A stretch of 36,739 nt of DNA, from assembly GCA_013177895.1 (NCBI GenBank), contig JABLXV010000034.1:1-36739 (forward strand), written 5' to 3'. Both the position numbers and the translations under genes were made by a program. Positions within the stretch are counted from its first letter, which is position 1, and every line of letters starts with the position of its first letter. The notes below the pieces were generated by a model. It saw only the letters and a program-made list of their open reading frames with translations, did not search any database and was not told the origin of the DNA. The stretch comes from Brevinematales bacterium. Its GTDB lineage: Bacteria; Spirochaetota; Brevinematia; Brevinematales; GWF1-51-8. Shown here piece by piece: positions 28,381 through 36,739 of this stretch.

Positions 28381-28869
28381 TTAGTCTCCGAAGAAATGGT
28401 CGGATTCCTCATCCGCTGAGGGTTCCTCAACGTTATTGATTTTATCCACTATTTCTTGAACAACAGAGTTTTCTTTCTGGATTTGCTTCGCCTTCTTCTT
28501 AAATAATCGGTATTCCACCCTGAATTCCTTGAGTTCGTCGCCGGAGAGTTTGTCTTCCTCGCTCTCCAACTGTTCATCCAACGCGATAATAACCTTCAGG
28601 GTTTCTTCGATATTCTTGAGAGATTCTTCCTGATTATCGCCGGCATCGTATTGTTCAATATACTTTTCAAGCATCGCAATTTGTAAATTACCCTTCTCGA
28701 CCATCATCTTCCATTCGGACGGTGTGCTTGGATCTTGGTTCTTATCGGGGTCTTCACTCTCGACGCTCGCTACGCCGGAAAAGAAATTACTGAACGAAGT
28801 GCCGGAAAAGAACGAGATCAACGAAAACACCGCAATTGCCAGCAGGAGTAACGATACTAAAGCCTTCAT
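28381..28869 (-). CDS. Single-TM coiled-coil protein in the place of ATPase subunit K
   Basis: 162 residues. One N-terminal hydrophobic segment (about 4-22, possibly an uncleaved anchor), a short Ser/Asp/Pro-rich linker, then a highly charged helical stretch (about 52-150) likely to be coiled coil (for example KNIEETLKVIIALDEQLESEEDKL). The C-terminus is acidic. No family recognised. It starts 18 bp after the stop of ATPase subunit I behind GAGGAGG, so it is almost surely in the same transcript. It is not a proteolipid: only one hydrophobic helix and no Glu/Gln-bearing TM hairpin. Confidence 0.65.
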   Translation of the reverse strand: MKALVSLLLLAIAVFSLISFFSGTSFSNFFSGVASVESEDPDKNQDPSTPSEWKMMVEKGNLQIAMLEKYIEQYDAGDNQEESLKNIEETLKVIIALDEQLESEEDKLSGDELKEFRVEYRLFKKKAKQIQKENSVVQEIVDKINNVEEPSADEESDHFFGD

Positions 28870-28887: not shown

Positions 28888-30810
28888 TTAATCTTTTTTG
28901 AAATCTTTTAACGAACGAAAACTGCGCCCGTCGGCGCGGAAAAACTTCATAAAGAATTCATAGTATTCGAGCCTGAGCGCCTGAATACCTACCACCAATC
29001 CCTCGAAGCCGATGATAAACAGATTGCCGATCAGGATAACGATCGCCTGGGAAATAGGATTGGTCGACATATTCGCGATAATAAACACCGCGCTCATCAA
29101 CGCGCCGTGATTGAGGGCGAACGCGCCGACACGCACGAACGATATAGTGTTCGATAACATCGACAGGGTCGTCTCAAATAGGTCGATTGCCCCGAGACCG
29201 GGACTCTGCTTCTCCCCGTGATGGAACAATTTATACGAGAGCCATTTATCCAGCCAGATAAAGATACCCGACGTGATGGGAATATAGATAACAAACTGGG
29301 GGAATACTCCGCCGGTCAGCAGATTATACCCGATAAACAGTAAGCTCCAATAGAAGATCAGCCCAGCGATACCGTTCGGCGCGAAAAGCATCATACCCCA
29401 ATCCTTACGCCTGAACGAATTGATGATACCGAGAATCGTACCCAGCGAGATCATCACTACCCCGAATACGATAGCCACCACCAGTATCGTGTTGATATTA
29501 TGGATAGGGGAAAGCCATAACGGGGGATCGATCAACGGTATCCCGAATACCTCGCCGTATAATACGCCGAAGATTGCCGAGGAAATACCGCCCCATACCA
29601 TGATGGCGGCAAGACTCGCGAGCTGGCCGGTACGTTTGAGGAGCATCACGATGAGGCCAGTGATTGATAAAATCAACCCGTGCCCGACGTCCCCGAACAT
29701 CGCGCCGAACATGATAATATAACTGACCGCCGCAAATACCGTCGGGTCGAATTCCTTATAGTTCGGCGTACCGAACATATTCACGAGGAGTTCGAACGGC
29801 TTGAGTACTTTGGGATTCTTCAGACGCGTGGGCGGCATAATCCCGTCCCGCATGTATAGCACCGCCGCGTCCTCGTCCAGAAATTCGCATTTATGTTCGG
29901 TAAGTTCTTCAATAGTTTTCTTCAGGTCTTCCACCATATCCGACGGCACCCATCCCGAGAAAAGAACGACGGAATTAGTGGAAACCATCTCGCCCCGGAG
30001 TTTGTTCAGGTTGAGATAGTACTCGATACTCGATTCGAGACGAAGCACGGTTTCAGAAAGACGCTTGATCATCTTTTCATGCTGTTTCTCGAGCAGGATT
30101 TCCTCGTCCACCGCAATCGAGTATTCGAAGCCGTACTTCATTATCCTGTTACGGATATTTTTCTTCGCGTCGGTAGGGATACCGTAATCCTGATAGAAGA
30201 CGTTTTTCAATATTTTATCGACCTGTTCGCGGGCCGTGTTCGGGACGGTAAAAAATATCATATTATTCTGGGAAATCGTCCCGACATTCATGACTACCGA
30301 CGGGATAGTCGAAACAGCGTCCATGAAGGTCTGGTACTGCGCAGTCGGAATTCCGCCGAACCCCATGAAAAAGTTATGCACCTCGCTCGTCTTGTCGAGG
30401 TCGAAGTCGAGGTTTCCGAAGAACCGGTAGCTATCGAGCTTTACCAGATATTCGGTCTGGCGTTTCTTAACATTTTCCATCTCATGGGTGTATTTCGACA
30501 CCTCGAGTTCTATTTCTTTCATCACTGATTTAATGGAGATTTCATCGAGGTAGTCGACAGCGGTTTTAGCGGGTAATGCCTGTATTTTCCCGAAAAATGC
30601 CTTGACCGTATTCAAACGCCGGCGGTAATCCATGAAACGGTTCGTTACATCGTCGAGGGATTCTTTTTTGAGGGAGTATGTCCGCACCTCGGAACCGGAG
30701 AGCCTGATAATTTCGAATTCGCCGAAATTCATCACCTCTTTCGCCACTTCGTCGACATGCCGTTTCAGGATCACTATATCCAGTTTCTTCATATTCTGCG
30801 GTAAAAACAT
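28888..30810 (-). CDS. atpI: A/V-type ATPase subunit I (a)
   Basis: 640 residues. The cytoplasmic half (1-340) has long helical hairpins and a SGWVPSD strand (285-291). The membrane half starts at about 355 with the hallmark EFDPTVFAAVSYIIMFGAMFGDVGHG (353-378) and has about seven to eight TM helices. SFVRVGAFALNHG (557-569) holds Arg560, matching the essential Arg of the proton or Na+ half channels. It forms the static half channel next to the c-ring. The gene lies 13 bp after subunit C. The proteolipid gene that normally follows is missing. Confidence 0.93.
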   Translation of the reverse strand: MFLPQNMKKLDIVILKRHVDEVAKEVMNFGEFEIIRLSGSEVRTYSLKKESLDDVTNRFMDYRRRLNTVKAFFGKIQALPAKTAVDYLDEISIKSVMKEIELEVSKYTHEMENVKKRQTEYLVKLDSYRFFGNLDFDLDKTSEVHNFFMGFGGIPTAQYQTFMDAVSTIPSVVMNVGTISQNNMIFFTVPNTAREQVDKILKNVFYQDYGIPTDAKKNIRNRIMKYGFEYSIAVDEEILLEKQHEKMIKRLSETVLRLESSIEYYLNLNKLRGEMVSTNSVVLFSGWVPSDMVEDLKKTIEELTEHKCEFLDEDAAVLYMRDGIMPPTRLKNPKVLKPFELLVNMFGTPNYKEFDPTVFAAVSYIIMFGAMFGDVGHGLILSITGLIVMLLKRTGQLASLAAIMVWGGISSAIFGVLYGEVFGIPLIDPPLWLSPIHNINTILVVAIVFGVVMISLGTILGIINSFRRKDWGMMLFAPNGIAGLIFYWSLLFIGYNLLTGGVFPQFVIYIPITSGIFIWLDKWLSYKLFHHGEKQSPGLGAIDLFETTLSMLSNTISFVRVGAFALNHGALMSAVFIIANMSTNPISQAIVILIGNLFIIGFEGLVVGIQALRLEYYEFFMKFFRADGRSFRSLKDFKKD

Positions 30811-30823
30811 CGTTCATCCTGCC

Positions 30824-31819
30824 TTAGTATAACAAGTTTTCGAGAATCTTACGGTCGATTCCCGCCCGCTTTCCTTCCAATAGAATAATATATTTTCGGA
30901 CATCCATACTTTTTAAAATAATGAACGAGAGAAATATCCCGAACTGGAACGGTATCCCGCCCAGATAACGGTGCGTCCGTTTGACGATCGCCTTATTGAG
31001 CGCGTTCTCCAAGAGGGCGATATCGGTAACCGGTTCCGCGAGTATACCCATATGCGAAATATTCTCTAAAAACGCCGCAGGCGTCTCAGACGAGACCAAT
31101 TCCTGGTACTTGCGGCGCGACAGGGACTTAAAGATATTCGGTATAATCGTCATCGTTTCTTCAATCGATAACTGGTACTCGAAACGGAGACGGTATATCC
31201 TCATAAAACGATTCACTTCCATGGAGAAAAACAGTAGTCTTTCAATCGCGCTTTTATTGGAACGGGACATTTTTTGCGCGATCCCTCTCAGATGCTGGGC
31301 GTAAAAATTATCGAGCGATACTTCCCAGAAAAACGTGTTTCCCGTCTCGATCACATTCGGGAAAGTTTTCACCGCAAGGTCATGATAATCCGTGCGCCGC
31401 AGAAATTCCTGAAATTCCTCGAATGTCCGCAGGTCCCGGACGGTTTCTATCCGCAGCCAATCTTTCTCTGTAATCGTATATAAAAAATCGATAGGCCTGC
31501 GGGTCACCAGCGCGCGCGCGACCATTTTTAAATTCTCGATCCGGTACGCTTCAAGCCATTTCTCTAAAAACAGCGCGGGTTTCCCCACAATAAAATTCAG
31601 CCCGCTCTTGATATATGCGACAATCCCGTTTTTCAGTACTTTCTCGATCTCCATGAGCTCGCCCGTATCGATATTTTCTTTTTTTAACCGTGTGCGGATA
31701 AATTCGATTACATCGTTCAGGCCCGCGCCGATGAGGAATTCCATTTCCTCATTTTTTAATAAAAATGATAGCCAGTTTCGCACTTTTGGATTAACCGCTG
31801 TAAATTCGAGACCGAACAT
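30824..31819 (-). CDS. atpC: A/V-type ATPase subunit C (d-like)
   Basis: 331 residues, all-helical. LEKWLEAYRIENLKMVARALV and a later helix FLRRTDYHDLAVK match the NtpC/d family, which caps the c-ring and couples it to the central stalk. The C-terminal part (FGIFLSFIILKSMDVRKYIILLEGKRAGIDRKIL) is the most conserved. It starts directly at the stop of the coiled-coil stalk gene (TAG-ATG), so the two are translationally coupled. Confidence 0.85.
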   Translation of the reverse strand: MFGLEFTAVNPKVRNWLSFLLKNEEMEFLIGAGLNDVIEFIRTRLKKENIDTGELMEIEKVLKNGIVAYIKSGLNFIVGKPALFLEKWLEAYRIENLKMVARALVTRRPIDFLYTITEKDWLRIETVRDLRTFEEFQEFLRRTDYHDLAVKTFPNVIETGNTFFWEVSLDNFYAQHLRGIAQKMSRSNKSAIERLLFFSMEVNRFMRIYRLRFEYQLSIEETMTIIPNIFKSLSRRKYQELVSSETPAAFLENISHMGILAEPVTDIALLENALNKAIVKRTHRYLGGIPFQFGIFLSFIILKSMDVRKYIILLEGKRAGIDRKILENLLY

Positions 31820-32131
31820 CTATTTCTCCAAAATCATGCTTATCAATTTCTCTTTAATTTCTTGACGTTTCTTTTCTATAATACGTTGTTTCTTTTCTTT
31901 TTCTCTTCCCACCATTTCATCCAGTTCCTTCTGGCGTTTTTCCACTTCGAGGGTTATTTCATCTTTACGCTTCTGCATTTCTTTTTCAAAATTATTCTGG
32001 TACTCTTCTTCCATCTTAATCGCTTTCGCGCGCGCCTCATCTAACACAGCCTTGGCCTTTTTCTCGGTCTCCATGCTGTTTTGCTGAACTTCGTGCTCGA
32101 CCTTGATAATCGAATCGATTATGTTCCTCAT
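31820..32131 (-). CDS. A/V-type ATPase peripheral-stalk coiled-coil subunit (H/G-like)
   Basis: 103 residues, almost entirely charged heptad-like helix (KKAKAVLDEARAKAIKMEEEYQNNFEKEMQKR), matching the small peripheral-stalk subunit (AhaH/NtpF type) by size, composition and place. It should pair with subunit E to make the stator. Subunit E itself is not in the window and may lie upstream of A. It overlaps the Usp-like gene by 1 nt (TAATG) and abuts subunit C. Confidence 0.65.
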   Translation of the reverse strand: MRNIIDSIIKVEHEVQQNSMETEKKAKAVLDEARAKAIKMEEEYQNNFEKEMQKRKDEITLEVEKRQKELDEMVGREKEKKQRIIEKKRQEIKEKLISMILEK

Positions 32132-32580
32132 TATTGTTCTCCCGTCACAATCAGGTCAAAATCCGTCTGCGACAAAAGTTTCCGTTCGACCACCCCGAAC
32201 AGGTCGCGGCAGTCCTGCGATTCACGGCGTTTCGCGATACATACCAGTTTCGCATCCGCCTGATCGTTTTTTATATACTCGAGTATTTCCGAGAACGGGT
32301 CCCCCTCGAGCAGGACTTTTGTTATCGCGATACCCGTTTGTTCCGCGACCTTCTCCGCATAATGCAGGTACTTTTCCGCGTCGCGTTTCAGGCTGTCGGT
32401 AAACATCGCGGATTCCTCGTCGATAAATATCTTATACCGTTGGAGTTTGTTGATGGACTCCTGGTCTACTACATTAATCACTACAACTTCGAGGTCGAAA
32501 CGTTTAGCCGTTTCAATTCCCTTCTGAATCGCGCGCTTCGCTTCAGTGGCGCCGCAGATAGGAATGTAAATTTTCTGCAT
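32131..32580 (-). CDS. UspA-like universal stress protein within the ATPase operon
   Basis: 149 residues. The alpha/beta UspA pattern is clear: KIYIPICGATEAKRAIQKGIETAKRFDLEVVVINVVDQ, a central helix with DAEKYLHYAEKVAEQTG, then KVLLEGDPFSEILEYIKNDQADAKLVCIAKR and FGVVERKLLSQTDFDLIVTGEQ at the end. The G-2x-G-9x-G(S/T) ATP motif of ATP-binding Usp proteins is not well kept, so it may be of the non-ATP class. It lies between D and the coiled-coil stalk gene, where subunit F or other stalk genes occur in other operons, but it has no F-subunit features. It may tune or sense ATPase output; that is inference. Confidence 0.75.
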   Translation of the reverse strand: MQKIYIPICGATEAKRAIQKGIETAKRFDLEVVVINVVDQESINKLQRYKIFIDEESAMFTDSLKRDAEKYLHYAEKVAEQTGIAITKVLLEGDPFSEILEYIKNDQADAKLVCIAKRRESQDCRDLFGVVERKLLSQTDFDLIVTGEQ

Positions 32581-32594
32581 TCGCGTTCTCCTCT

Positions 32595-33230
32595 CTATTT
32601 TTCCGCCAGATGGGCGTTTTTAACACGTTTCATCTGGAAGAATGTCTCGCGTTCACGTTCTTCAAGCGTGTCCTGTATGTATTTGACAATCTCCTTAAAC
32701 ATGGGGATAAAATTGTTCTCCAGCGCGTTCACGCGCCGCTGGGTCTTTTTTATCTCGTAGGCCAGTCTCCACGCGGAAACCTCGACCTCGGCGACAAACA
32801 GCAGGAGTTTCATAATCTCGCCTATCGCCTTCGAGAGCATATCGTAGCTCATCGTGGTCGTACTGATGGAAATCTGGGGCCCCTTTTTTATCGTCAATTT
32901 ATCTTTATTCTTAATCGTCGGTACGGCGACTCCCATCACGCTGCGTTCGATAATATCGAGCGACATTTCCGAACGGATACCCTTGAGGAGGCGTTCGATC
33001 TCGAATTCGCCGATTTCCAGTTCGAGAAGCGCTAGGTAATCGTATGCAATCTTGAGCTGTTCGTTCAGACGCTTCCGCTGATCCTTGATCTTGGAAATCA
33101 CCTCGAGCAGGTTCATTACCAGTACTTCACGTTTCTGCTCCAAAAGCGCATGGCCGTCCTGCGAGAATTTCAACTGTCCTTTATATTCGAGCAAATTCGT
33201 TTTAGTAGGCGCGATTTCCGAAAGATTCAT
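32595..33230 (-). CDS. atpD: A/V-type ATPase subunit D
   Basis: 211 residues. N-terminal KTNLLEYKGQLKFSQDGHALLEQKREVLVMNLLEVI is the classic subunit D helix. The second long helix is at the C-terminus (AWRLAYEIKKTQRRVNALENNFIPMFKEIVKYIQDTLEERERETFFQMKRVK). It forms the central rotor shaft within the A3B3 head. It starts 3 bp after the B stop codon, and the next gene starts 14 bp after its stop. Confidence 0.95.
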   Translation of the reverse strand: MNLSEIAPTKTNLLEYKGQLKFSQDGHALLEQKREVLVMNLLEVISKIKDQRKRLNEQLKIAYDYLALLELEIGEFEIERLLKGIRSEMSLDIIERSVMGVAVPTIKNKDKLTIKKGPQISISTTTMSYDMLSKAIGEIMKLLLFVAEVEVSAWRLAYEIKKTQRRVNALENNFIPMFKEIVKYIQDTLEERERETFFQMKRVKNAHLAEK

Positions 33231-33233
33231 CCG

Positions 33234-34637
33234 TTATTCCTCCGTCTCGTCCTTGCCGACATAATGTTCCTTGATCTCTTTCTCGGTCAGCCCGGACAGT
33301 TCCGACGCCGGCAGTATCGAGAGTATTTCCCATGCAAGGTTCATGCTGGTTTCCATTGTGCGATCCTCGCTGAATCCCTGCCCCGCGAAATGGTTCTCGA
33401 ACTCATAACCGAACTTCAGGTAACGTTTATCTACCTTACTTAATTCCTCTTCGCCGATAATGGACGCGATCGAACGGATTTCCTTCACACGGGAATACGC
33501 CGCGTACATCTGCATAAACAGGTGCGGATGATCCTTCCGGGTATATCCCTCGCCGATACTGTCCTTCATCAGACGGGACAGGGAGGGCAGGATATCGATT
33601 GCGGGATAAATCCCCTTACCGTGCAGCTCGCGCGAAAGTACGATCTGACCCTCGGTGATATACCCTGTCAGGTCGGGCACCGGGTGCGTAATATCGTCGT
33701 TCGGCATCGTCAGGATAGGCACCTGAGTGATACTCCCCGGCAAATTCTTCACTCTTCCCGCGCGTTCGTAAAGCGTCGAGAGGTCGGAATACATATATCC
33801 CGGGAAACCCTTTCTCGCGGGTACTTCGCCGCGGGCTGTGCCGATTTCGCGGAGCGCCTCGCAGTAACTGGTCATATCGGTCATAATTACAAGCACGTGC
33901 TTGCCTTTCTCGTACGCAAGATACTCCGCGGTCGTGAGCGCGATACGCGGCGTAATCACGCGTTCTATGGACGGGTCGTCGGCCAGATTGAGGAACATGA
34001 CCACATTCTTCAACGAGCCGGTGTCCTCGAAATTGCTGATGAAGAAGGATGCGTCGTCATGCTTGATACCCATCGCGGCGAATACGACGGCAAAATTACC
34101 GCTCTCCTCGCCGGGTAGTCGCGCCTGCGCCGCTATCTGCGCCGCGAGTTCGTTATGCGGAAGCCCCGCCGCCGAGAAAATAGGCAGCTTCTGCCCGCGT
34201 ACCAGCGTATTCATCACATCGATCGCGGATACCCCTGTTTCGATATACTCACGGGGATATGCGCGAACCACCGGATTGAGCGGCTCGCCGTTTACATTAC
34301 GGCGCTCGTCCGGTATAATATCCGCCAGCCCGTCGAGAGGCCGGCCCATCCCGCTGAATACCCTGCCGAGCATCTTCTCGGATAGCCCGATTTCAAAGGG
34401 TTTGCCGGAAAACTTCAGGCTAGTCTTTTCGGGATTAATCCCGCTCGTGCCTTCGAATACCTGAAGGATCACCGCTCTGTTCGTGCTTTCCAGAACCTTA
34501 CCGAGACGCCGGGATTTGTCGGATAGGGTGATTTCCACTATCTCATCATAGCCTATCCCGTCAATTCCTTCGACTACTGCGATGGGTCCGTTAATCCCGG
34601 TCATTCCGCGGTACTGCCGCGTCATTTCATATGACAT
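33234..34637 (-). CDS. atpB: A/V-type ATPase subunit B
   Basis: 467 residues. Non-catalytic B chain: the P-loop position reads [21 protein letters not shown] instead of a Walker A. Other marks are [53 protein letters not shown] and [17 protein letters not shown], and the C-terminal region ends [17 protein letters not shown]. It pairs with A to form the catalytic hexamer. Start at 34637 from GAGGA 6-7 nt upstream; a longer open frame to 34700 overlaps the preceding gene and lacks a site. Confidence 0.97.
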
Positions 34638-34656: not shown

Positions 34657-35055
34657 TCAAGGTAAATCCTCTTCCTGCTCCTCCCCCCACTCGTCATCAA
34701 GAACCTCGGCGATACCGCCGAGCGCCTTGATATAAATCCCTCCGATCCGTTCGAAAATTTCCGAGCCCTGCTCTTCAGCCCTGCCGCCGCGGATCAGTTC
34801 CCAATCGTCGAGCATCTGCATCGGGAACATGTCCTCCGGCAGGAGCTCGGCGTGGATCGCGGTGATGAAACTTTCCCGGATCGTGCCCGTTTCTATCGAG
34901 TGATGCTCCAACAGACTCAGGGTGATATTCCTGAGCATATCGAAGCACACCACGAACCGGTGAAAAACCGCGCCTACCCCGATCTCATCCTCGGCATGCT
35001 CGTGCGCGTATTTCAGCATATAAACCAGTTCTTTCAACTCTCCGATTTCATTCAT
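34657..35055 (-). CDS. HEPN-like small protein between ATPase subunits A and B
   Basis: 132 residues, predicted all-helical, with an acidic tail. The core (about 29-90: [33 protein letters not shown], then a DDWELIRGG segment) resembles the HEPN/nucleotidyltransferase substrate-binding (HI0074-like) family. The catalytic R-x4-6-H of HEPN RNases is not intact: the place reads RGGRAEEQ. So it may be only a structural or regulatory member. No nucleotidyltransferase gene is near. It fits tightly in the operon, 20 bp after A and 19 bp before B. An unrelated helical adaptor is possible. Confidence 0.5.
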
Positions 35056-35075: not shown

Positions 35076-36739
35076 CTACTCTTTATAAATATCTTCTATT
35101 TCTTCAAATTCGGTCATCATCGCTTTCTCGATCTTGTCCATCTCGCTCATATCCTCGTTAGGAACCGTCATTTTTACACGGATGATTTTCGAGATCGACG
35201 CCATCTCTTTTATTTCAAAAATCGGCGCGCCCATTCTTACAATTTCCGACGCGCGCTCGTGAAACTTCAGGATAAGTTCCAATATCTTCAACTGCTTCTC
35301 GGGAGAGGTATACATATCGATATCGTCATACGCGCTCTGCTGGAGGAAGCCGAGCTTGATTATTCTCGCGACCTCGATAATCAGGCGCTCCGAATCGGGA
35401 AGCGCGTCGGGCCCGACCAGTTTGACGATTTTCTGCAGATGGTCTTCCTTCTGGAGGATTTCGTACGCGCGCACGCGTATCTCACGGTACTTCCGCGAGA
35501 CGTTCTTTACCCACCATCCCTCGCAGGCGTCGGCGTATTCGCTGTAACTCCGCATCCAGTTGATCGACGGGTAATGGCGCGCGCTCGCGAGCGATTTATC
35601 CAGCTCCCAGAAACAGCGCACGAAACGCTTGGTGTTCTGGGTGACCGGTTCGGAGAAGTCTCCTCCGGGAGGCGATACCGCCCCGATAACAGTGATAGAA
35701 CCCGTTTTTCCCGACAATGTGGTGGTGTATCCCGCGCGCTCATAGAACGCAGCCAAGCGCGAGCCCAGATAGGCGGGGAACCCTTCTTCGGCGGGCATTT
35801 CCTCGAGACGCCCGGACAGCTCGCGGAGAGCCTCCGCCCAGCGTGACGATGAATCCGCCATCAGAGCCACATCGTAACCCATATCGCGGTAGTACTCCGC
35901 GAGCGTGATCCCCGTATAGATCGAGGCCTCGCGCGCGGTAACCGGCATATTCGACGTATTCGCGATCAGGACAGTCCGTTCGATCAGCGGTTTATTGGTG
36001 CGCGGGTCGATCAGCTTCGGGAACTCCTCGAGCACTTCGGTGATCTCGTTCCCGCGTTCGCCGCACCCTATATACACAATCACCTGCGCGTCCGCCCATT
36101 TGGCGAGCTGGTGCTGGGTGATCGTCTTACCAGTGCCGAACCCGCCAGGAATAGCGGCAGTCCCGCCCTTCGCCATCGGGAAGAATGTATCCACGATTCG
36201 CTGCCCGGTCAGAAGGGGAATAGTCGGTATATGCCGTTCGGTCACAGGACGCGGCGTTTTTACCGGCCAACGCTGATACATCTTTACTTCGATATCTTCA
36301 CCGAACGGCGTATGCACTACGGCGATTACTTCGTCGACCGTATATTCGCCTTCGGATATCATTTTCGTGATTTTACCCTGAACCTTCGGCGGAACAAGCA
36401 CCCTGTGCTCGATCAGAGAAGTTTCCTGAACAGTCCCGATAATCGCGCCCCCGGTAATCATATCCCCGTTCTTGACGGCAGGCTTAAAGGGCCACTTTTT
36501 CTTACGGTCGAGAGAGGGAATATTGATACCGCGCCCGATATAAATTCCGCTGATTTTAGCGATCTCCTCCAACGGGCGCTGAATACCGTCGAAAACGTTG
36601 CCGATCAACCCGGGGCCGAGTTCGACCGATAACGGAAGCCCCGTCCCGTAGATACTATCGCCTGGCTTTACCCCGCTGGTATCTTCGTAGACCTGTATAT
36701 TCGCGATATCCCCATTGATACCTAAAACTTCGCCGATCA
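35076..36739 (-). CDS. atpA: A/V-type ATPase catalytic subunit A (5' end cut by the window)
   Basis: 553 codons visible, open through the window edge; a complete protein is expected to be near 590. The P-loop GGFGTGKT is encoded at about 36146-36123, followed by GCGERGNEITEVLEEFP with the catalytic Glu. The N-terminal bulge domain is visible (VLVPPKVQGKITKMISEGEY), as is the SITVIGAVSPPGGDFSEPVTQNTKRFVRCFWELDKSLASARHYPSINW block. The sequence before the first internal start reads LSVELGPG, clearly part of the beta-barrel domain, so the Met-like codon at 36608 is not the true start. It drives ATP hydrolysis or synthesis. Confidence 0.97.
   Translation of the reverse strand, partial: IGEVLGINGDIANIQVYEDTSGVKPGDSIYGTGLPLSVELGPGLIGNVFDGIQRPLEEIAKISGIYIGRGINIPSLDRKKKWPFKPAVKNGDMITGGAIIGTVQETSLIEHRVLVPPKVQGKITKMISEGEYTVDEVIAVVHTPFGEDIEVKMYQRWPVKTPRPVTERHIPTIPLLTGQRIVDTFFPMAKGGTAAIPGGFGTGKTITQHQLAKWADAQVIVYIGCGERGNEITEVLEEFPKLIDPRTNKPLIERTVLIANTSNMPVTAREASIYTGITLAEYYRDMGYDVALMADSSSRWAEALRELSGRLEEMPAEEGFPAYLGSRLAAFYERAGYTTTLSGKTGSITVIGAVSPPGGDFSEPVTQNTKRFVRCFWELDKSLASARHYPSINWMRSYSEYADACEGWWVKNVSRKYREIRVRAYEILQKEDHLQKIVKLVGPDALPDSERLIIEVARIIKLGFLQQSAYDDIDMYTSPEKQLKILELILKFHERASEIVRMGAPIFEIKEMASISKIIRVKMTVPNEDMSEMDKIEKAMMTEFEEIEDIYKE

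What the first reader, a model, noticed from the sequence alone, without database searches (positions are those of the whole stretch)
34657..35055. HEPN-like gene inserted between ATPase subunits A and B
A and B are almost always adjacent in A/V-type operons. Here a 132-aa helical protein, perhaps a degenerate HEPN/substrate-binding protein lacking the catalytic His, sits between them with 19-20 bp gaps. Spirochaete operons carry an unnamed gene near A (established for Borrelia and Treponema, upstream of A), so this could be a moved or analogous factor: an assembly or regulatory subunit.
Basis: partly seen in the sequence, partly recalled or inferred. Interest (0 to 1): 0.5.

Follow-up and report, generated by a model that had tools for sequence, protein, structure and literature searches.

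The report
Disarmed toxin relative in ATPase operon
In one small group of groundwater spirochaetes, a gene descended from a bacterial RNA-cutting toxin has lost its cutting site and now sits, well preserved, between the two main genes of an ion-pumping rotary ATPase, so it probably helps to build or control that machine.

Summary
Between atpA and atpB of a complete A/V-type ATPase operon lies an intact 132-codon gene, here called X, with gaps of 20 and 19 bp. X is homologous to HI0074-class HEPN proteins: TTHA0048 at profile E 2.2e-5, and TIGR01987 'HI0074' at 3.9e-7 for one ortholog. The predicted fold (pLDDT 90.8) matches HEPN toxins at Z 13-16. The RX4HXY motif is destroyed in all four orthologs and no nucleotidyltransferase (MNT) partner lies on any X-bearing contig, so X is a disarmed toxin descendant, not a toxin-antitoxin unit.

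X is present and under purifying selection in 4 of 4 genomes of its genus (Brevinematales, Spirochaetota). It is absent from the A-B junction in 9 of 9 other genomes of the order and from the second ATPase operon of its own genome. It is not the spirochaete/Bacteroides DUF2764 protein. Sister families carry an unrelated F420_ligase-like gene between E and A, which the X genus lacks.

Most likely X is a domesticated, non-catalytic protein-binding factor that assembles or regulates this one ATPase. The ancestry and loss of catalysis are shown; the ATPase role is inferred from position alone. It is a new variant of a known kind (domesticated HEPN).

The parts
34657..35055 (-). X: 132-aa HI0074-class HEPN-fold protein with the RX4HXY motif destroyed (W85, G90, R92 where the family has R, H, Y)
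35076..36737 (-). atpA, catalytic subunit A (5' end runs off the window/contig)
   Evidence: Pfam ATP-synt_ab, ATP-synt_ab_Xtn; 591 aa in G001
33234..34637 (-). atpB, subunit B; start ATG at 34637
   Evidence: Pfam; start set
32595..33230 (-). atpD, subunit D
   Evidence: Pfam ATP-synt_D 3.8e-49
32131..32580 (-). Universal-stress-protein-family gene inside the operon, conserved across the order
   Evidence: Pfam Usp 9e-13; 13 of 13 genomes of the order
31820..32131 (-). G/H-like peripheral-stalk coiled-coil subunit (only a weak hit to V-ATPase_G; assigned by position and length)
   Evidence: (E 0.94)
30824..31819 (-). atpC, subunit C
   Evidence: vATP-synt_AC39 4.1e-32
28888..30810 (-). atpI, subunit I
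   Evidence: V_ATPase_I 6.9e-33

Best explanation
X is the descendant of the toxin half of an HI0073/HI0074-type (MNT/HEPN) toxin-antitoxin module. It lost its nuclease and AMP-acceptor residues and its MNT partner, and was kept as a protein-binding factor of one particular A/V-type rotary ATPase. Inferred mechanism: X is made from the polycistronic mRNA between A and B, where the two head subunits are being translated. It folds as the usual HEPN helical bundle and probably dimerises through helices 1 and 2. It uses this now acidic, non-catalytic scaffold to bind nascent or free A and/or B and so promotes or restrains A3B3 head assembly or activity. Shown: ancestry, fold, loss of the motif, no local MNT, purifying selection, restriction to this operon in this genus. 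Inferred: dimerisation, binding to A/B, and any effect on assembly or activity.
For: Homology: 1WTY/TTHA0048 is the only PDB hit (phmmer E 8.6e-4; profile 2.2e-5). The G003 ortholog hits PF08780 (7.7e-5) and TIGR01987 HI0074 (3.9e-7). Among 392 phylum genomes the only 6 hits outside the genus at E<=0.001 are all HEPN partners beside, or fused to, an MNT-like ORF. Fold: pLDDT 90.8, five helices; the best 16 entries by VIA-align are all HEPN (Z 15.9 to 10.8; HI0074 1jog 13.5), against 8.6 for the first non-HEPN row. Motif lost: the H column is G/G/D/N and the Y column R/K/K/S in X, against H in 11 of 12 and Y in 12 of 12 relatives aligned. No MNT hit lies on the X contigs. X is acidic (net -18 to -21; relatives -1 to -8), which disfavours RNA binding. 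Purifying selection. Helix 1 is the most conserved part (15 of 18 positions); helices 1 and 2 form the dimer interface of a Legionella HEPN (PMC11586414, passages). X is absent from the second ATPase operon of the same genome, so any role would be specific to this enzyme.
Against: No direct evidence links X to the ATPase; the argument is position. The X insertion is one evolutionary event in one genus, and synteny in the genus also extends outside the operon, so conserved adjacency is weaker than it looks. X evolves faster than A, B and D (61% against 90%, 91% and 84% identity, G000-G003), although subunits G (55%) and C (66%) evolve as fast. No clear X-specific co-changes were seen in A, B or D: 3, 7 and 0 genus-specific columns, against 2-33, 0-11 and similar counts in control families. 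A complex prediction could not be run.
Confidence: 0.5

Rival explanations
1. Passenger: X is a useful protein with a job unrelated to the ATPase (for example a partner of an MNT encoded elsewhere), parked in a strongly expressed operon.
For: The genus is rich in MNT genes (22, 16, 14 and 19 PF01909 hits in G000, G001, G002 and G003). Only one insertion event is seen. Synteny around the operon is general in the genus.
Against: The residue that MNT modifies (Tyr of RX4HXY) is gone in 4 of 4 orthologs, so the known MNT-HEPN chemistry cannot apply. The gene has kept tight 14-25 bp spacing between A and B.
Confidence: 0.3
2. Expression regulator: like the inactive HEPN repressor MtlR of the mannitol operon, X acts on the mRNA or translation of its own operon and tunes the A:B ratio.
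For: Inactive HEPN proteins of the MtlR family sit in the operon they repress and were proposed to act as RNA-binding proteins (PMC3710099, passages).
Against: X is very acidic (pI 4.35-4.43), an unlikely RNA binder. It did not match MtlR by profile at E<=10.
Confidence: 0.12
3. Still a toxin, acting without the canonical motif.
For: Some HEPN proteins without the motif are toxic (PMC3710099, passage).
Against: No MNT antitoxin on the same contig; embedded in a housekeeping operon; acidic overall.
Confidence: 0.03
4. A moved version of the spirochaete/Bacteroides upstream-of-A gene (DUF2764).
For: Both lie next to A.
Against: DUF2764 is absent in 4 of 4 genus genomes and present in 13 of 41 genomes searched; in sister families it sits upstream of A in a different, divergent operon (B 35-36% identical). 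The lengths are 271 and 132, and X matches only PF08780.
Confidence: 0.01

Closest known systems
HI0074 / HepT (HEPN-M; PF08780, TIGR01987) toxin of MNT-HEPN (type VII) toxin-antitoxin modules
   Same: Detectable sequence homology along most of the chain, same helical-bundle fold (Z 13-16), similar length, conserved R60 of the family
   Different: RX4HXY destroyed in 4 of 4, no MNT neighbour, strongly acidic, below the curated cut-offs, sits in an ATPase operon
MtlR and the HEPN domains of GlnD/GlnE and kanamycin nucleotidyltransferase (domesticated inactive HEPN)
   Same: HEPN fold without the catalytic motif, kept for a housekeeping or regulatory role (PMC3710099, passages)
   Different: Those are in a mannitol operon or fused to nucleotidyltransferases; X stands alone between two rotary ATPase subunits
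DUF2764 (PF10962), accessory gene upstream of atpA in some spirochaete and Bacteroides ATPase operons
   Same: An accessory gene adjacent to atpA
   Different: Unrelated by profile, twice the length, other side of A, other operon type, absent from this genus
F420_ligase-like (PF01996) gene between E and A in sister families f2 and f3
   Same: Lineage-specific accessory gene in the orthologous operon; X occurs only where it is missing
   Different: Different protein family and position; its own function is unknown

Membership tests
HI0074/HepT HEPN toxins (PF08780, TIGR01987) | Sequence homology to the family | tested here: met
   1WTY E 8.6e-4 and 2.2e-5; 6 of 6 phylum hits outside the genus are MNT-linked HEPN proteins
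HI0074/HepT HEPN toxins (PF08780, TIGR01987) | Score over the curated cut-off | tested here: not met
   G003 ortholog 23.1 bits against 31.8 and 30.2 against 55.8; the window protein has no hit
HI0074/HepT HEPN toxins (PF08780, TIGR01987) | HEPN fold | tested here: met
   pLDDT 90.8; Z 15.9 to HEPN toxin 8yuf, 13.5 to HI0074 1jog
HI0074/HepT HEPN toxins (PF08780, TIGR01987) | RX4HXY RNase / AMP-acceptor motif | tested here: not met
   R kept in 1 of 4, H in 0 of 4, Y in 0 of 4 orthologs
HI0074/HepT HEPN toxins (PF08780, TIGR01987) | Adjacent MNT nucleotidyltransferase gene | tested here: not met
   No PF01909 or PF18765 hit on any of the four X contigs; the G002 contig is only 5.6 kb
DUF2764 (PF10962) | Profile match | tested here: not met
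   Only PF08780 is matched by any of the 4 orthologs at E<=10; PF10962 absent from the genus
MtlR | Profile or fold match | tested here: inconclusive
   No profile match; MtlR structures are not among the 50 entries listed, which excludes nothing
Known A/V-ATPase subunits | Profile match to a known subunit | tested here: not met
   None for X. The operon already has A, B, D, C, E, F, I and K confirmed by profile; a G-like gene is assigned by position and length only
Known A/V-ATPase subunits | Physical presence in the complex | not testable with these tools
   Needs purification or a complex prediction

The most novel reading that the evidence does not exclude
A toxin of a toxin-antitoxin module has been turned into an extra, lineage-specific subunit or dedicated assembly/inhibitor protein of a rotary ATPase, acting on the A3B3 head, and took the place of another lineage-specific accessory protein (F420_ligase-like) of the same operon.
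Probability: 0.3. Interest if true: 0.7.

Novelty: new variant of a known kind. Interest (0 to 1): 0.42.

Why it matters
Domesticated inactive HEPN domains are known, but I found no paper that puts one in a rotary ATPase operon. If X binds the head, it would be a toxin recruited into an energy-coupling machine, and a handle on how bacterial A/V-type ATPases are assembled or switched. The pattern of alternative accessory genes (X in one family, an F420_ligase-like gene in two others, neither in a fourth) suggests that this operon repeatedly takes up accessory factors.

Tried and rejected
Rejected: chance ORF (constant length, dN/dS 0.11-0.18). Moved DUF2764. Recent copy of the genus's own HEPN genes: X is far closer to HEPN proteins of other spirochaete families (best E 3e-7 for the window X and 2e-12 for the G003 X, against the G180 protein) than to those in its own genus (E 11 or more), so an older or horizontal origin from a canonical HI0073/HI0074 pair is likelier. 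Active toxin-antitoxin unit (motif and partner missing).

Led nowhere: X in PLSDB plasmids, no match. PADLOC, no match. An attempt to find a conserved solo MNT as a remote partner: single-linkage clustering merged most MNTs into one group, so it is inconclusive (38 loci were listed for it, not all 71 PF01909 hits). Genus-specific co-changes in A, B, D: not clearly above controls. The conservation of residues 1-24 (20 of 24 invariant, hypergeometric p 8e-4) is for a region chosen after looking. Foldseek's best E was 1.1e-3, none at or under 0.001; the fold claim rests on probability 1.00, TM 0.69-0.79, VIA Z and the independent sequence hits. In one search several YN00 estimates gave errors and some NG86 dS were saturated. 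MtlR structures did not appear in the 50 rows, which excludes nothing. The weak hits other than L005, L006 and L009 (E 0.06 to 0.8) were not followed.

Full report
What is there. Window 34657-35055 (-) encodes an intact 132-aa protein, X, between atpA (ends at 35076) and atpB (starts at ATG 34637), with gaps of 20 and 19 bp. Downstream follow D, a Usp-family gene, a G-like coiled-coil gene, C and I. In relatives the upstream part is K, F, E, A.

Is it a gene? X has 132 codons in 4 of 4 genomes, 92, 77 and 61% identical to the window protein. NG86 dN/dS is 0.110-0.175 for the five pairs with usable dS; the sixth was saturated. B is intact in G000, G001 and G003, while in G002 it is split into two overlapping frames.

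What family? The window protein alone hits no Pfam, NCBIfam or PADLOC model. It hits one PDB sequence, TTHA0048 (1WTY), at E 8.6e-4; the 4-row profile gives 2.2e-5. The most divergent ortholog (G003) hits PF08780 at 7.7e-5 and TIGR01987 'HI0074 family nucleotidyltransferase substrate-binding subunit' at 3.9e-7, both below the curated cut-off. A search of 392 Spirochaetota genomes with the profile found 10 with a hit: the 4 of the genus and 6 others. In all 6 others the hit lies beside, or fused to, an ORF that I read as an MNT nucleotidyltransferase by its GS..D.D motif. AlphaFold2 gives mean pLDDT 90.8 with five helices. VIA-align ranks 16 HEPN entries first (Z 15.9-10.8, among them HI0074 1jog at 13.5 and the HEPN toxins of several MNT modules), ahead of Las1 (9.5) and Csm6 (8.6), which are HEPN too by recall, and of the first non-HEPN helical bundle (8.6). 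Foldseek agrees (probability 1.00, best E 1.1e-3).

Disarmed. In an alignment of 4 X and 12 HEPN proteins the RX4HXY columns read R: W, W, W, R; H: G, G, D, N; Y: R, K, K, S in X (order G000, G002, G001, G003), against R 12 of 12, H 11 of 12 and Y 12 of 12 in the others. RX4H is the RNase motif and Y the residue that MntA adenylylates (PMC7641770, passages). No MNT domain (PF01909 or PF18765) is found on the X contigs, although each genome has 14-22 elsewhere. X is far more acidic (net -18 to -21) than the relatives (-1 to -8). PMC3710099 (passages) already describes domestication of MNT-HEPN modules and inactive HEPN regulators such as MtlR, so the kind of change is known.

Distribution. X is at the A-B junction in 4 of 4 genus genomes. 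The 9 other genomes of the order all have the orthologous operon with A and B 34 bp or less apart and no X. The second, divergent ATPase operon of G000 also lacks it (L079). In families f2 and f3 (5 of 5 genomes) a 226-233-aa F420_ligase-like gene (PF01996, E 4.6e-9 and 9.9e-11 for the two tested) lies between E and A; in f4 (4 of 4) there is nothing there. That gene is found in 5 of 26 genomes searched, and not in the X genus. A tree of A+B gives ((f1,f3),f2) with bootstrap 74 and 71 for the two deeper nodes, so loss of the F420_ligase-like gene and gain of X on the f1 branch is the simplest reading, with modest support. DUF2764 is absent from the genus and, in f2 and G008, lies just upstream of A of another operon.

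How it may work. The strongest inference is a non-catalytic protein-binding role tied to this ATPase: right place, selected, absent from the other ATPase, and no RNA-cutting or AMP-acceptor residues left. Helices 1 and 2 carry the dimer interface in a Legionella HEPN (PMC11586414, passages), and helix 1 is the best-kept part of X (15 of 18), which suggests that the dimer or a partner surface there is kept. That A or B is the partner is inference. The main rival is a passenger gene. Against the main reading: one evolutionary event, general synteny in the genus, faster evolution than A, B and D, and no clear co-changes in those subunits.

Literature. Seven searches (listings only) showed no paper that reports a HEPN gene in a rotary ATPase operon; the library lacks most subscription journals.

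Noticed in passing
window 32131-32580 (-): A universal-stress-protein-family gene lies between D and the G-like gene of the ATPase operon in 13 of 13 genomes of the order. An order-wide accessory of this ATPase, possibly a nucleotide-sensing regulator; its role is unknown.
   Followed up: partly
L073:10708-11403 (-), L074:3466-4146, L075:3974-4675, L076:10224-10925 (-), L080:4027-4728: F420-0:gamma-glutamyl-ligase-like gene (PF01996) between subunits E and A in the orthologous operon of two sister families; 65-71% identical to the G005 copy and found in no other of 26 genomes.
   Followed up: partly
L079 (G000:C7:1-16000): The genome carries a second, divergent A/V-ATPase operon (B about 55% identical) with another gene order (G-like, I, K, two unassigned genes, F, A, B, D) and two extra small genes (91 and 156 aa) after D.
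   Followed up: no
G000-G003: The genus is rich in MNT nucleotidyltransferase genes: 22, 16, 14 and 19 PF01909 hits in G000, G001, G002 and G003, several paired with HEPN genes whose motif is intact.
   Followed up: partly
L018:1208-2732: atpB of G002 is split into two overlapping frames, a frameshift that may be an assembly error.
   Followed up: no
window 28381-28869 (-): 162-aa protein of unknown family with an N-terminal hydrophobic segment, directly after subunit I; it has only a 35% identical counterpart at the same place in G003.
   Followed up: no
L088:1468-1860: HEPN protein beside an MNT with Cys in place of the catalytic His but with the acceptor Tyr kept.
   Followed up: no
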